From the NCBI RefSeq assembly GCF_000422765.1, contig NZ_KE383917.1, positions 1-64,000 of the forward strand: DNA of 64,000 nt, given 5' to 3'. Shown in pieces: positions 20,537-29,415 of the stretch. The position numbers and the translations under genes are program-made. Within the stretch, counting starts at the first letter, position 1. Every line of letters begins with the position of its first letter. Source of the stretch: Neptunomonas japonica DSM 18939. Its GTDB lineage: Bacteria; Pseudomonadota; Gammaproteobacteria; Pseudomonadales; Balneatricaceae. The notes beneath the pieces are model-generated. The model had not been told where the DNA came from, did no database searches, and saw nothing but the letters and a program-made list of their open reading frames with translations.

Positions 20537-20565
20537 ATATTAGAACCAATAGTTCCAATTGTAAA
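20537..20565 (-). promoter_or_regulatory. PR: early promoter for cro and replication
   Basis: On the minus strand TTTACA (20560-20565), a 17-base spacer and TAATAT (20537-20542) form a near-consensus promoter. The spacer holds the operator dyad GGAAC-N5-GTTCT (20542-20556), so a bound repressor would block polymerase. The cro ATG lies about 25 bases beyond the -10. Confidence 0.85.
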
Positions 20566-20612
20566 GAACTGATACTTCCATTAATTTGCTAGAAAATAGA
20601 ACCTCAAGTTCT
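20542..20612. promoter_or_regulatory. OR: three repressor operators between cro and cI
   Basis: Three 15-base dyads of the form AGAAC-N5-GTTCY lie at 20542-20556 (AGAAC CAATA GTTCC), 20565-20579 (AGAAC TGATA CTTCC, one weak half) and 20598-20612 (AGAAC CTCAA GTTCT). The first sits in the PR spacer, the second in the PRM spacer, and the third in the cI leader. The same dyad occurs three times again at OL, 2 kb away, which supports recognition by the prophage repressor. Confidence 0.85.
20559..20587 (+). promoter_or_regulatory. PRM: promoter for cI
   Basis: TTGTAA (20559-20564), a 17-base spacer and TAATTT (20582-20587) precede cI. The -35 overlaps the PR -35 on the opposite strand, so the two promoters are mutually exclusive. 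The middle operator fills the spacer exactly. The predicted start point near 20594 leaves a leader of about 30 bases that contains the third operator. Confidence 0.78.
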
Positions 20613-20624
20613 AACCGGTGTCTG

Positions 20625-21407
20625 ATGACAATGAACTCAAGCTTAGAAAAAGCCGCATTCGGCAAAAGAATGAGCGCCCTACTTATTGAAAATGGTTTTT
20701 CAAAGCCTGGTCGTGGCAAAAATAAAGGCGAGACGATGCCGGATCACAACGCATTCGCGGTTGCGTATGTAAAAAAGGCAAACGAGTCCCTTAATTACAA
20801 GTCAGTTGAAAAGTGGTGTAAGGGAGAGTCTTTTTGTGAAACAAAGAGGTTTCCTGTGATTTGCGAACTTCTAGATGTTAATCAAGAATGGTTGGCAACA
20901 GGCAGAGGTGAGGCTAGATACTCTGATGACTCAGAAGGCGGGGCTCATGAAGATCCACAGCTCTACAGCCCTTATTCTAAATTTATAAAAATCCCTATCA
21001 TTGAGGCATCTTTGGCTGCGGGTGCTGGATCATACGCAACAGAAGATGTAATAAGTGAATATATGGAAATAGGTCGCGATAGACTGGAAAAGTACCAAAT
21101 CAACGAGAACACAGCAACAATCGCTCCGATTCGAGGAGAGTCGATGGAGCCAACGTTAATTTCAGGCGACTTATTACTAGTCAATACGTCGGTTCGCAAG
21201 CCTATAAGTGGTAAAATATTTGCGTTCGATTTTGATGGTGATCTTAGAATAAAGCGCTTTAATAAGCGCTTAGATGGATCGTGGCTTATCAGTAGTGATA
21301 ATGAAGATAAAAACCTATATCGTGACGAAGTTGTTTCGGCACACAACATCAACCAACTTAGAATTATTGGGCAGGCTGCTTTTGTGGTTGAGAGAAGCTT
21401 GCTATAA
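20625..21407 (+). CDS. cI: CI-like repressor with S24 autoprotease domain
   Basis: With the start at 20625 (MTMNSSLEKAAFGKRMSALL) the product is 260 residues. An ATG two codons later is also possible. The N-terminal domain has a helix-turn-helix (about 45-75: NYKSVEKWCKGESFCETKRF). An Ala-Gly cleavage site lies in SLAAGAG near residue 132. The C-terminal LexA/S24 domain shows RGESMEPTL with the nucleophilic Ser at about 173 and LRIKRF with the Lys general base 37 residues on. It should hold the lysogenic state and be inactivated by RecA-stimulated self-cleavage on DNA damage. No strong ribosome site is visible. Confidence 0.93.
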   Translation: MTMNSSLEKAAFGKRMSALLIENGFSKPGRGKNKGETMPDHNAFAVAYVKKANESLNYKSVEKWCKGESFCETKRFPVICELLDVNQEWLATGRGEARYSDDSEGGAHEDPQLYSPYSKFIKIPIIEASLAAGAGSYATEDVISEYMEIGRDRLEKYQINENTATIAPIRGESMEPTLISGDLLLVNTSVRKPISGKIFAFDFDGDLRIKRFNKRLDGSWLISSDNEDKNLYRDEVVSAHNINQLRIIGQAAFVVERSLL

Positions 21408-21420
21408 ACGAGAGAGAGAA

Positions 21421-21846
21421 ATGAAAAAAGGGATTTTAATATTTGCGGCCGCTTTTACCTTGCTTTCTGGTTGCACTCCAAACGTAACAAAAGAGCAGCT
21501 TGAAAACGCATCCTACGGACATCCGCCTACTGCCTACAAAGCAACCATTAATGACTATCTAGATGGCTCATTAAAAGACCCTGAATCAAAGCGGGTAAAA
21601 TACGCGGGCGAGCCTAAAAAAGGCCACTGGTACTATTCTGGCGATAAATTCGGCTACTTCGTATGCGCAACTGTAAATGCGAAAAACAGCTACGGCGGTT
21701 ATGCAGGAAAAAGCGCTTATTTCTTTGGCTTTCAAGACAACCAAATGCAGGCAGTATTCAGCGATGATGAGTATTTGAGCACACAATATATCAATTGTAT
21801 GTGTGCGCAAAAACCAATTAATTCGATTACCCTGAGTTGCAAATAG
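21421..21846 (+). CDS. Prophage lipoprotein downstream of cI (possible lysogenic-conversion gene)
   Basis: The start at 21421 follows GAGAGAGA, 13 bases after cI, giving 141 residues. The leader MKKGILIFAAAFTLLSGCTP is a signal peptide with lipobox LLSGC. The mature protein has a compact motif set (YLDGSLKDPESKRVKY, then GYFVCATVNAKNSYGGYAGK) seen in uncharacterised bacterial lipoproteins. As part of the cI transcript it should be made in the lysogen. Known proteins in that slot (lambda Rex, phage Cor and Llp) exclude other phages, so a surface-exclusion role is a reasonable guess only. Confidence 0.75.
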   Translation: MKKGILIFAAAFTLLSGCTPNVTKEQLENASYGHPPTAYKATINDYLDGSLKDPESKRVKYAGEPKKGHWYYSGDKFGYFVCATVNAKNSYGGYAGKSAYFFGFQDNQMQAVFSDDEYLSTQYINCMCAQKPINSITLSCK

Positions 21847-21851
21847 GCGCT

Positions 21852-22514
21852 TCAGCTAGATAGCAGTTCAGCCCAGTTCTTTTCACTAATAATTTTTATA
21901 GGGTGGCCAGCTTCTCGCATGGCCACTGCTTTTTCTATCTTTCGGCCCGATGATGTGCTTGCCCAATCCCTGCTGCCAAGATCGCCAATGATCAAATAAT
22001 TGGTCTTTTTAGTTGGACTTTTCGCGCACGATCCACCACCAGAAATAACCATTGCCTCGCACTCTGTTCTAGTCCCTGATGCAAACTTCCCCGTCAAAAC
22101 AAAGGCCGCGCCTTCAGTCTTAATCTCATCTATTTCTATGACTGGCAAGCTGGTACTTATTGAGTCCGTCAGCACCTCTCCGGTACTTGTATCGATACAT
22201 TCTTGCTTTTGCTTATCCCCTACAGCATCACGCAACAGCTTTAGTAAAGCCGCGGCGTTTTCTTGATTAAGCCCACCGTTAGAAAGGGTTTCTGTAAGCT
22301 GCTTATAAATAACATTCGCCGGCCAATGCTGAGTAAGCTCAGGGTTGGTGTTCAGCCATAGTAAAAGATTTTCGGCTTCAGCTTGATTTACTTCACCATC
22401 AAAGATAATCCCGCGACATATGCCGTACAGCTCATTTTTTTCGCGAGTCATGCGTTTAGCGGCGTGCAACCGAGCGGTTACAGACTGGCCATTAACATCG
22501 TTCCCTATCGTCAT
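21852..22514 (-). CDS. BRCT-domain protein in the prophage immunity region
   Basis: The start at 22514 (MTIGNDVNGQSVTARLHAAK) has AAAAGGGA eight bases upstream, giving 220 residues. The N-terminal half is helical with a possible TerB-like or helical-repeat character (LYGICRGIIFDGEVNQAEAE). The C-terminal 85 residues form a BRCT domain as in bacterial DNA ligase (GAAFVLTGKF, TRTECEAMVISGGGSCAKSP, TNYLIIGDLGS, GRKIEKAVAMREAGHPIKII). It is convergent with the lipoprotein and reads away from OL. Its own promoter overlaps an operator. The role is unknown. DNA-end binding or a defence or anti-defence activity are possibilities without direct evidence. Confidence 0.8.
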   Translation of the reverse strand: MTIGNDVNGQSVTARLHAAKRMTREKNELYGICRGIIFDGEVNQAEAENLLLWLNTNPELTQHWPANVIYKQLTETLSNGGLNQENAAALLKLLRDAVGDKQKQECIDTSTGEVLTDSISTSLPVIEIDEIKTEGAAFVLTGKFASGTRTECEAMVISGGGSCAKSPTKKTNYLIIGDLGSRDWASTSSGRKIEKAVAMREAGHPIKIISEKNWAELLSS

Positions 22515-22554
22515 TAATAAATCCCTTTTCAAAATACTTCGTTATCACTCACAA

Positions 22555-22582
22555 ACTATACTCCGCAAAAATAAAGAACCAA
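22555..22582 (-). promoter_or_regulatory. Promoter of the BRCT gene overlapping an OL operator
   Basis: On the minus strand TTGGTT (22577-22582), a 16-base spacer and TATAGT (22555-22560) precede the BRCT gene by about 40 bases. The -35 lies inside the operator at 22575-22589, so the prophage repressor could control this gene. Confidence 0.6.
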
Positions 22583-22654
22583 ATATTCCATTAAAGCTTT
22601 ACTAATGGAACTATCGGTTCTATTATTCACTCAACAAACAGAACAATTGGTTCC
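22575..22654. promoter_or_regulatory. OL: three repressor operators
   Basis: Dyads lie at 22575-22589 (AGAAC CAAAT ATTCC), 22607-22621 (GGAAC TATCG GTTCT) and 22640-22654 (AGAAC AATTG GTTCC), with 32-33 base periodicity. They share the half-sites of the OR operators. The middle one sits in the spacer of the PL promoter and the first overlaps the BRCT gene promoter. Confidence 0.85.
22598..22626 (+). promoter_or_regulatory. PL: early promoter for plus-strand operon
   Basis: TTTACT (22598-22603), a 17-base spacer and TATTAT (22621-22626) precede the first early gene at 22660. The spacer is filled by an operator, the same design as PR. The predicted start point is near 22633. Confidence 0.82.
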
Positions 22655-22659
22655 ATATC

Positions 22660-23151
22660 ATGATTGAACGAACAGCAGAAGGATATGCGCGAGCAAAGTG
22701 GGAATGCCGACCAATGAAACTGCCCAACGGTCGCAATCTTACACCCACAGAGGCTCGTACTGTTTTATGCCGAATGGGTGGACTTTCTCAGAAAGAGGCA
22801 GCTCAAGAGATGCATTGCAGTAAAAGCAACATCGTTCAAATGTGGCAGTCCATCTACTTCAAAACCTCCACCAGCGATGTGGTACTTGCTATCAACTCAT
22901 TAATGGATCTTGGAGCGCTTCACCGTCTTGGTTTGATTCTGATTATGAGTTTTACCTGGTTAACGCTTCCAGCCCTGCAAATAGACGCTGACGCCGATAT
23001 TGAACTAAGCCGCCGCACTCGTACCAGTCGACGTACAAGAACCACCAGCAGAACACGAAACACACGCTTAGACGATATTGAAAAGCTGGTGGGTGATGCT
23101 GTTTACGACCTCTATAACGGTTCAGATTTTGGAGCCTCTTATGCTGCCTGA
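22660..23151 (+). CDS. First PL gene: helix-turn-helix, membrane span and Arg-rich segment
   Basis: This 163-residue protein starts MIERTAEGYARAKWECRPMK. Residues 30-65 hold a LuxR-like helix-turn-helix (LSQKEAAQEMHCSKSNIVQM). Residues 85-105 are hydrophobic (LGLILIMSFTWLTLPAL). Residues 116-135 are an arginine-rich run of SRRTRT-type repeats. As the first gene after PL it occupies the slot of lambda N, and the Arg-rich run could be an RNA-binding motif, but the membrane span is unlike N. Its function is not known to me. Confidence 0.68.
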   Translation: MIERTAEGYARAKWECRPMKLPNGRNLTPTEARTVLCRMGGLSQKEAAQEMHCSKSNIVQMWQSIYFKTSTSDVVLAINSLMDLGALHRLGLILIMSFTWLTLPALQIDADADIELSRRTRTSRRTRTTSRTRNTRLDDIEKLVGDAVYDLYNGSDFGASYAA

Positions 23152-23299: not shown

Positions 23300-23577
23300 T
23301 GATCGGCACACATACAACAGCACGTTTAGTCTGCCTACCTTCAAGCACTCTTATGTGCAATGTGACTTATAGCGTCACTGATCGTATGGGTGGCCAGTAT
23401 GGGTGCGGCCAAACCGTCGTTGACCTTATCTCAATAAAAACACCTTCAGGCATAAATTTGCTGGATAAAGTCCCAGCTACAGAGCGCCTGATATTAGAAA
23501 TGGGCCTATACGAAAGAGAAGCCCGCAAAGTATTTGATGAAACTCAACCCAAAAAGGAAGGAACCGAACAATGCTAA
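23299..23577 (+). CDS. Unrecognised early phage protein
   Basis: This 92-residue protein starts [20 protein letters not shown]. It is coupled to the upstream membrane peptide by TAATG and overlaps csrA by seven bases. It contains a strand-rich central part ([20 protein letters not shown]) and a helical C-terminus. I see no known motif. Confidence 0.6.
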
Positions 23578-23801
23578 TTCTTACTCGTCGTGTTGGTGAA
23601 ACGTTAATGGTAGGTGATGAGGTGACCGTCACTGTGTTGGGCACTAAGGGCAACCAAGTGCGTATTGGTGTTAATGCTCCTAAAGATGTTGCTGTGCACC
23701 GTGAAGAGATTTATGAGCGCATTCAGGCTGAGAAAAACACTGAAAGCAAAGCTGGTCCAGATGGCGACAATCTTCGCGTTGAAAGCGGTAGAGGCGAATA
23801 A
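23571..23801 (+). CDS. csrA: Phage-encoded CsrA-family RNA-binding regulator
   Basis: This 76-residue protein opens with [20 protein letters not shown], the nearly invariant CsrA/RsmA start, including Leu4 and Arg7 used in RNA binding. [16 protein letters not shown] contains the second binding Arg (in HRE). CsrA dimers bind GGA motifs in mRNA leaders and change translation or stability. The C-terminal 20 residues are an acidic extension beyond the usual 60-residue core. Expressed from PL, it could redirect host carbon and biofilm regulation during early infection, or control phage mRNAs (inference). Confidence 0.92.

Positions 23802-29338: not shown

Positions 29339-29415
<77 letters not shown>

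What the first reader, a model, noticed from the sequence alone, without database searches (positions are those of the whole stretch)
21852..22589. BRCT-domain gene in the immunity region with promoter overlapping a repressor operator
A ligase-type BRCT domain fused to a helical N-terminal region is rare as a stand-alone phage gene. It sits where lambdoid phages keep exclusion or accessory genes, reads against cI, and its -35 box lies in an OL operator. It could act on DNA ends, block host or rival-phage recombination, or take part in a defence response.
Basis: partly seen in the sequence, partly recalled or inferred. Interest (0 to 1): 0.7.

Follow-up and report, generated by a model that had tools for sequence, protein, structure and literature searches.

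The report
Phage gene that may sense DNA ends
A small gene next to the master switch of a dormant virus in this bacterium encodes a protein that probably grips broken DNA ends; relatives sit beside the same kind of switch in many other viruses, so it is likely a real but unstudied part of how such viruses guard or manage their dormant state.

Summary
The gene is real: 21852-22514 (-) from ATG, or 22532 from TTG. It encodes a helical domain plus one BRCT domain, inside an integrated prophage. It is not rare: all 38 aligned homologues match PHROG 3989 (unknown function). It is no ligase fragment: 0 of 41 phage or viral records, some of them fragments, hold a ligase adenylation domain. Each of the four residues that bind a DNA 5' phosphate in yeast Rfc1 is kept in at least 133 of 134 aligned homologues.

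The place is the strongest result. In 23 of 23 records with an S24 repressor the gene lies on the 3' side of cI, 21 within 3 kb (6.4 expected). It is either co-directional behind cI, or convergent with cI and starting at the second operator cluster. A matrix from three OR sites ranks exactly the three OR and three OL sites highest in 64 kb. One OL site covers the weak (8/12) -35 box. Operator-like copies precede the gene in some, not all, convergent relatives.

Best reading: a CI-linked, DNA-end-binding accessory protein, more likely for exclusion or defence than for DNA metabolism. Neither DNA binding nor defence was shown. A 2026 preprint mentions BRCT genes with cI in Roseobacter prophages.

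The parts
21852..22514 (-). helical domain + BRCT gene (ATG start; TTG 22532 possible), 220 aa
   Evidence: phrog_3989 E 8e-55
22215..22514 (-). N-terminal four-helix domain, residues 1-100
   Evidence: AlphaFold of residues 8-104: pLDDT 93.3, pTM 0.82; no significant PDB fold match; TerB relation not established
21855..22133 (-). BRCT domain, residues about 128-220, RFC1/LigA type
21939..22094 (-). stretch holding the phosphate-pocket residues T141, G142, R149, K192
   Evidence: T 133, G 133, R 134, K 133 of 134 aligned homologues; matching residues in yeast Rfc1 T166/G167/R174/K209 (PMC9359705 passages)
22576..22589 (.). OL operator nearest to the BRCT gene, over its proposed -35 box; lowest-scoring of the three OL sites
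   Evidence: score 11.35
22607..22620 (.). highest-scoring OL operator, in the spacer of PL
   Evidence: score 17.36, highest in 64 kb
22640..22653 (.). third OL operator
   Evidence: score 12.66
22598..22626 (+). PL promoter of the early-left operon, TTTACT-17-TATTAT
   Evidence: 9 of 12 (6 sites found in the region, 4.5 expected in shuffles)
22555..22582 (-). proposed BRCT-gene promoter, TTGGTT-16-TATAGT (weak)
   Evidence: 8 of 12; below the threshold
20543..20612 (.). OR operator cluster: 20543-20556, 20566-20579, 20599-20612
   Evidence: PR promoter 20565-20537 (-), 9 of 12
20625..21407 (+). cI-like S24 repressor gene
   Evidence: PF00717 E 3e-18; start from the gene call on L012
21421..21846 (+). 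lipoprotein-like gene behind cI (phrog_2320, unknown function)
   Evidence: E 3e-22; relatives next to BRCT genes in L033 and L034
20275..20511 (-). Cro/YdaS-like gene
   Evidence: weak match PF15943, E 4e-5, below cut-off
22660..23151 (+). first gene of the early-left operon, sigma-region-4-like HTH protein, divergent from the BRCT gene
   Evidence: phrog_3282 E 6e-8; same divergent place in L013, L014, L015, L119
27910..29070 (+). integrase gene at the end of the prophage, next to tRNA-Val (29339-29415)
   Evidence: PF00589 E 2e-10; tRNA

Best explanation
The gene encodes a single-BRCT protein of the immunity region that most likely captures 5'-phosphorylated DNA ends or nicks through the T141-G142-R149-K192 pocket and brings a partner through its helical N-terminal domain. 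It is tied to the CI switch: in some phages it lies directly behind cI on the same strand; in this one its start region lies in the OL operator cluster. I think its net effect is to act on foreign or damaged DNA in lysogens (exclusion or defence), more than to serve the phage's own replication. Shown: domain, residue conservation, place relative to cI, operator cluster at its start. Inferred: DNA-end binding, partner recruitment, regulation by CI and its direction, and the exclusion role. The lowest-scoring OL site overlies the proposed BRCT promoter while the highest lies in PL, as OR3 does to PRM in lambda (recalled), so some expression in the lysogen is possible.
For: BRCT best matches by profile: RFC1 2ebu/2k6g/2k7f E 1e-8, then LigA; by fold LigA 9a6z, RFC1 2ebu and 2k7f are the only three at E<=0.001. 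Pocket residues each in at least 133 of 134 homologues. Yeast Rfc1 uses the equivalent T, G, R, K for the phosphate. S24 repressor within 3 kb in 21 of 23 S24-bearing records (the window's own included), 6.4 expected, maximum 15 in 20,000 draws; 23 of 23 on the 3' side of cI. Operators. K139 record: lysogenic operon cI-orf2(BRCT)-glo-int, with glo noted as involved in phage exclusion. Defence company: 29 of 38 members match PADLOC candidate PDC-S48 at E<=0.01; genes of one SngB-like cluster within 6 kb in 5 of the 80 genome loci kept (4 Hymenobacter, 1 Marinobacter), of which L169 and L192 were scanned and named SngB; HicB between BRCT and cI in L119.
Against: No binding or phage-challenge data. 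The window protein itself has no PADLOC match at E<=1 or 0.01, and PDC-S48 is only a candidate whose match may rest on the BRCT part. The own genome has no SngB. By my reading of the translations many chromosomal relatives lie among ordinary genes. If CI simply represses the gene here, it would be off in the lysogen, against an exclusion role. The same pocket binds phosphopeptides or poly(ADP-ribose) in other BRCTs, and XRCC1 BRCT1 binds DNA with another face and with little effect of a 5' phosphate, so conserved residues do not prove DNA-end binding. The OR-OL word control failed or was weak in 4 of 14 convergent loci.
Confidence: 0.42

Rival explanations
1. A lysis-lysogeny regulator: the protein senses DNA breaks and tunes the RecA-dependent cleavage of CI or otherwise adjusts induction.
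For: Positional lock to cI; 23 of 41 records hold S24 repressors (the self-cleaving type, recalled); a 2026 preprint groups cI and BRCT genes of Roseobacter prophages as DNA-damage-sensing modules replacing quorum-sensing modules.
Against: The gene also sits within 3 kb of HTH_3 genes without a nearby S24 in 9 of 41 records and beside K139 cI, where no S24 was found, and in chromosomes without a visible phage switch; the preprint gives no test of a BRCT gene in the passages and section read.
Confidence: 0.28
2. A DNA-metabolism helper of the phage (end protection, repair, replication or integration), for example an early end-blocking protein working like lambda Gam (recalled).
For: DNA-end type BRCT; if CI represses the OL-side promoter, the gene would be expressed early after infection or induction.
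Against: In the co-directional layout it lies behind cI, in K139 in the annotated lysogenic operon. Recombination genes were not searched for at these loci.
Confidence: 0.17
3. A truncated or split NAD-dependent DNA ligase (as several records are annotated).
For: LigA-type BRCT; Foldseek lists phage ligase subunit B 9hu3 at E 0.008; annotations 'NAD-dependent DNA ligase'.
Against: 0 of 41 phage or viral records, the window's own among them, hold the adenylation domain; the host's only one is in another contig. Some records are fragments. Helical domain + BRCT is conserved as a unit.
Confidence: 0.02
4. A neutral passenger whose place near cI reflects only the slot where spare genes are tolerated.
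For: The genes between BRCT and cI vary from phage to phage; relatives also occur in chromosomes.
Against: BRCT stays while its neighbours change; pocket residues near-invariant in homologues from several phyla; 23 of 23 on one side of cI.
Confidence: 0.11

Closest known systems
PHROG 3989 (K139 orf2, kappa kp3, Pseudomonas phi1 'NAD-dependent DNA ligase')
   Same: Same family: 38 of 38 aligned viral homologues match at E<=1e-5; K139, kappa and phi1 genes are tblastn relatives and lie next to the repressor in K139 and phi1
   Different: K139 carries the helical unit twice; there the gene is co-directional with cI, here convergent
RFC1 / LigA single BRCT domain
   Same: Sequence profile, fold and TG-R-K phosphate pocket
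   Different: No clamp-loader or ligase domains; the pocket lysine is 51 residues after the threonine here against 43 in yeast Rfc1, with an invariant tryptophan in the longer loop
Lambda-type immunity region with OR/OL and rex/exclusion genes (recalled)
   Same: Two operator clusters of three sites each, cI between them, accessory genes between cI and OL
   Different: The accessory gene reads from OL towards cI; no Rex-like protein was looked for
Shango (TerB-like protein, ATPase, helicase; SngA/B/C in PADLOC)
   Same: Some chromosomal relatives lie near SngB/SngC in Hymenobacter and Marinobacter
   Different: No SngB in the window's genome; the helical domain is not shown to be TerB
PADLOC candidate PDC-S48
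   Same: 29 of 38 relatives match; K139 orf2 matches positions 233-375 of 411, and a Hymenobacter exonuclease encoded next to a BRCT gene matches 6-168
   Different: No exonuclease part here; the window protein itself does not match

Membership tests
BRCT superfamily, RFC1/LigA type | Pfam BRCT above cut-off | tested here: met
   24.5 bits against 21.3; PF00533 at E<=1 in 32 of 38 relatives
BRCT superfamily, RFC1/LigA type | TG...R...K phosphate pocket | tested here: met
   T141 G142 R149 K192; each in 133-134 of 134 homologues; roles from passages of PMC9359705
BRCT superfamily, RFC1/LigA type | binds 5'-phosphorylated DNA ends | not testable with these tools
   needs a binding assay
NAD-dependent DNA ligase | adenylation domain in the protein or elsewhere in the phage | tested here: not met
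   0 of 41 records, some fragments; host copy only in contig C6
PHROG 3989 | profile match over most of the protein | tested here: met
   E 8e-55, residues 20-219 on profile 102-293 of 296
TerB | sequence profile relation of the helical domain | tested here: inconclusive
   hhalign with 14 TerB sequences: probability 4%, E 0.011, 41 columns; PF05099 in 4 of 38 members, best E 0.014
TerB | fold match | tested here: inconclusive
   best PDB match E 0.5, S100 protein; no TerB among the 50 rows shown of 86
Lambda-type immunity region | S24 repressor with two operator clusters flanking it | tested here: met
   (sequence only, no binding test)
Shango | SngA/SngB/SngC genes | tested here: not met
   no SngB in own genome at E<=1e-10; BRCT protein no PADLOC match
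PDC-S48 | exonuclease part plus C-terminal part in one protein | tested here: not met
   no exonuclease match in the protein; window protein unmatched
Superinfection exclusion gene | blocks another phage in a lysogen | not testable with these tools
   needs phage challenge

The most novel reading that the evidence does not exclude
Temperate phages of many bacterial groups carry a dedicated, CI-linked DNA-end sentinel: a BRCT protein that recognises 5'-phosphorylated ends of invading or broken DNA and couples this to exclusion of rivals or to the induction decision, and that is a phage-borne relative of modules used with exonucleases and Shango-like defence in chromosomes.
Probability: 0.3. Interest if true: 0.78.

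Novelty: new variant of a known kind. Interest (0 to 1): 0.55.

Why it matters
BRCT domains are best known from eukaryotic DNA-damage signalling (general knowledge). A BRCT gene held at the 3' side of cI in different temperate phages, with operator copies at its start in several of them, would point to a bacterial-virus use of the same DNA-end-sensing trick at the lysogeny switch. It makes a concrete, cheap test possible: one gene, a four-residue pocket, and two readouts (phage challenge, induction).

Tried and rejected
TerB identity of the N-terminal domain was my first impression. Pfam TerB matched 4 of 38 members (best E 0.014); profile-profile comparison with 14 TerB sequences gave probability 4%, E 0.011; Foldseek gave no significant match. 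Not established, so I call it only a helical domain.

Truncated or split ligase: rejected for this prophage.

PDC-S48 as a fused form: the class-wide search (263 of 274 genomes matched) was swamped by exonuclease-part matches; the matches listed (the list was cut) end by position 229 of 411, so no full-length fusion was seen.

Palindrome search for operators, first version, missed even the window's own sites because its symmetry threshold was too strict; replaced. At width 16 the OR-OL similarity was reached by at most 1 of 200 random places in 6 of 14 convergent loci (L015, L016, L030, L033, L042, L071), by 3-7 in L013, L036, L045 and L012 (the window's own), and by 16, 131, 132 and 172 in L119, L014, L028 and L041. 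Widths 14 and 18 were run too and change single loci (L012: 20 and 3 of 200; L119: 58 and 0; L014: 92 and 8). L036, L045 and L071 share the same operator word. The listing of copies and distances covered 7 of those 14 loci, chosen because or 38 had given a word, and has no chance control.

Pattern count with up to 3 mismatches was no better than chance (81 against 75), too loose; the matrix replaced it.

Gene calls in scripts are heuristic. In one search two viral loci (L032, L057) and two of 16 fetched genome regions (L126, L127) had no usable BRCT call, 4 of 80 genome loci. The position count does not use those calls but the ORFs. The 134 sequences hold some genes twice, because the 76 genome loci were not dereplicated against the 58.

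Full report
The gene. ORF 21852-22532 (-) is intact; ATG 22514 is the likelier start. It lies in an integrated prophage: portal-, capsid- and terminase-like ORFs to the left (my reading of the translations), a DnaT-like replication gene, a Cro-like gene, cI, the BRCT gene, an early-left operon and an integrase, then tRNA-Val at 29339-29415. A gene with 100% identity is in IMG/VR contig 2523533624_000003, perhaps the same genome. In the genus 2 of 8 genomes carry it, the own one included. In the class sample 26 of 369 genomes match PHROG 3989 at E<=1e-10: 16 strongly (E<=1e-46), 10 weakly.

What the protein is. The C-terminal 90 residues are a BRCT domain (PF00533; AlphaFold on 38 sequences, pLDDT 90.1, pTM 0.62). 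By profile the nearest solved chains are RFC1 BRCT (E 1e-8), then bacterial LigA. By fold a LigA model and two RFC1 entries are the only matches at E<=0.001, with modest TM-scores (0.53-0.54 on the RFC1 domain, rmsd 7.6-8.4). The N-terminal 100 residues form four helices; no solved structure matches significantly. The guess that it is TerB was not established. In K139 orf2 the helical unit is present twice.

The pocket. [quoted passage not shown] The window's T141, G142 and R149 keep the same spacing, and K192 is the equivalent lysine by alignment, after a longer loop. Counts over 134 aligned homologues (58 dereplicated plus 76 genome loci, some genes present in both): T 133, G 133, R 134, K 133, and W184 134. 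The same pocket binds phosphopeptides or poly(ADP-ribose) in other BRCTs, and XRCC1 BRCT1 binds DNA by another face with little effect of a 5' phosphate (PMC6334254, passages). DNA-end binding is therefore the likeliest function, not a proven one.

How common. The viral scan found 207 relatives among 259 candidate stretches and kept 80; the genome scan found 104 among 194 and kept 80, in Proteobacteria, Bacteroidota, Planctomycetota and others. Annotated phage records: 20 hold a match at E<=1e-5, 17 over at least 80% of the query, including Vibrio K139 and kappa, Pseudomonas phi1 and PG1, and Sulfurimonas SNW-1; the weakest three are a satellite-phage exonuclease-type protein (two records) and an unannotated record.

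Where it sits. I dereplicated 106 ORFs at 85% identity to 58. Of these, 41 are phage or viral records, the window's own contig among them; the other 17 (L003, plasmid L008, 15 genome loci) were left out of the position count. An S24 repressor is present in 23 of 41 records. It is within 3 kb of the BRCT gene in 21, and 3.8 and 4.5 kb away in two. Random placement of the gene on the same records gives 6.4 within 3 kb on average, at most 15 in 20,000 draws; on the 14 records of 30 kb or more, 12 against 2.5. In all 23 the gene lies on the 3' side of the repressor domain. Of the other 18 records, 9 have an HTH_3 match within 3 kb (E<=0.01; some below the family cut-off, and some may be Cro rather than CI) and 9 have neither; among those 9 is K139, whose record annotates cI directly upstream. 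The records are not all independent.

Two layouts. Co-directional: cI -> BRCT, as in phi1 and in K139, whose record labels PL as the promoter of the lysogenic operon cI-orf2-glo-int. Convergent: early-left genes <- OL -> BRCT -> ... <- cI, as here and in L013-L016, L119, L033, L036, L045 and L071 (heuristic gene calls). What lies between BRCT and cI varies: a lipoprotein gene here, HicB in L119, a sub-threshold HipA-like match in L016, DUF3037 in L042, nothing in L036, L045 and L071.

Operators. A matrix built from the three OR sites has as its six best hits in 64 kb those three and the three OL sites (sites picked by eye beforehand). The highest-scoring OL site (22607-22620) is in the PL spacer; the lowest (22576-22589) is over the proposed BRCT -35 box. 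That promoter is weak (8 of 12). In relatives with other operator words the OR word recurs upstream of the BRCT gene: three copies of 13-15 of 16 letters in L015 and L016, two in L033 and in L030, one good and one weaker in L013 (no chance control). The random-place control supports 6 of 14 loci strictly, is middling in four and fails or is weak in four (numbers under Tried and rejected). Whether CI represses or permits the gene is open. The geometry resembles lambda PRM with its weak OR3 (recalled), which would allow expression in a lysogen and reconcile the two layouts; plain repression would make it an early gene instead.

Function. For defence: 29 of 38 family members match the PADLOC candidate PDC-S48 (best E 3e-8). 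A Hymenobacter DEDDh-type exonuclease matches positions 6-168 of that profile and K139 orf2 matches 233-375, so the profile seems to join an exonuclease to a part like this family (inference). The exonuclease cluster c12 directly precedes the BRCT gene in five Hymenobacter loci (full length in L169, L174, L178, L184; a 93-residue piece in L180; only L169's was scanned). A SngB/BrxD-like cluster (c11) lies within 6 kb in 5 of 80 genome loci: L169, L176, L178, L184 and L192. Of these I scanned L169 (SngB, SngC), L192 (SngC, and SngB in two pieces of which one was scanned) and L176 (SngA). Plasmid L008 is annotated with a TerB C-terminal protein, an ATPase and a helicase upstream of the gene. Shango is a tested anti-phage system of a TerB-like protein, an ATPase and a helicase (PMC10250203, passages). 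Against: the window protein has no PADLOC match, the own genome has no SngB, four of the five linked loci are one genus, and many chromosomal relatives have ordinary neighbours by my reading. For a switch regulator: the place by cI, and a 2026 preprint on Roseobacter prophages that lists cI and BRCT genes in modules replacing quorum-sensing modules (PMC13345283, passages and section 14). I give exclusion/defence through DNA-end binding 0.42, a regulator 0.28, phage DNA metabolism 0.17, passenger 0.11, ligase remnant 0.02.

Print record. Searches 'BRCT prophage repressor' (6 papers), 'TerB BRCT' (7), 'BRCT domain phage superinfection' (0) and 'BRCT lysogenic phage genome' (3). Of these lists I opened PMC13345283 (above) and PMC4012209 (one passage: WYL domains combine with BRCT and TerB among others); the other listed papers were not opened. 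From 'bacteriophage K139 orf2' (6 papers) I looked for terms in two: both mention glo, neither BRCT. The library holds only open-licence papers, so an earlier description elsewhere cannot be excluded.

Noticed in passing
window 23571-23801 (+): A CsrA-family gene (PF02599, E 3e-25) in the early-left operon of the prophage, a host-type RNA regulator carried by a phage.
   Followed up: no
window 21421-21846 (+): Lipoprotein-like gene of PHROG 2320 behind cI; relatives lie next to BRCT genes in L033 and L034 on the BRCT strand, so the two genes may travel together.
   Followed up: partly
window 22660-23151 (+): Sigma-region-4-like HTH protein with a hydrophobic stretch (my reading), first gene after PL; a relative stands divergent to the BRCT gene in L013, L014, L015 and L119.
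   Followed up: partly
L004:5639-6070 and L026:4004-4501: Thermonuclease-like proteins downstream of the BRCT gene in Sulfurimonas phage SNW-1 (annotated so) and viral contig L026 (my reading), both with signal-peptide-like starts.
   Followed up: no
L169, L174, L178, L180, L184: Hymenobacter chromosomes have an exonuclease gene (a short piece in L180) about 90-110 bp before the BRCT gene, with Shango-like genes nearby in L169, L178 and L184.
   Followed up: partly
L204, L207, L213, L214: An ion-channel-like membrane protein (cluster c24, my reading) next to BRCT genes in four chromosomal loci.
   Followed up: no
L119:5681-6616: The congener's BRCT protein has a zinc-ribbon-like N-terminal extension (on the same gene in L003, my reading).
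   Followed up: no
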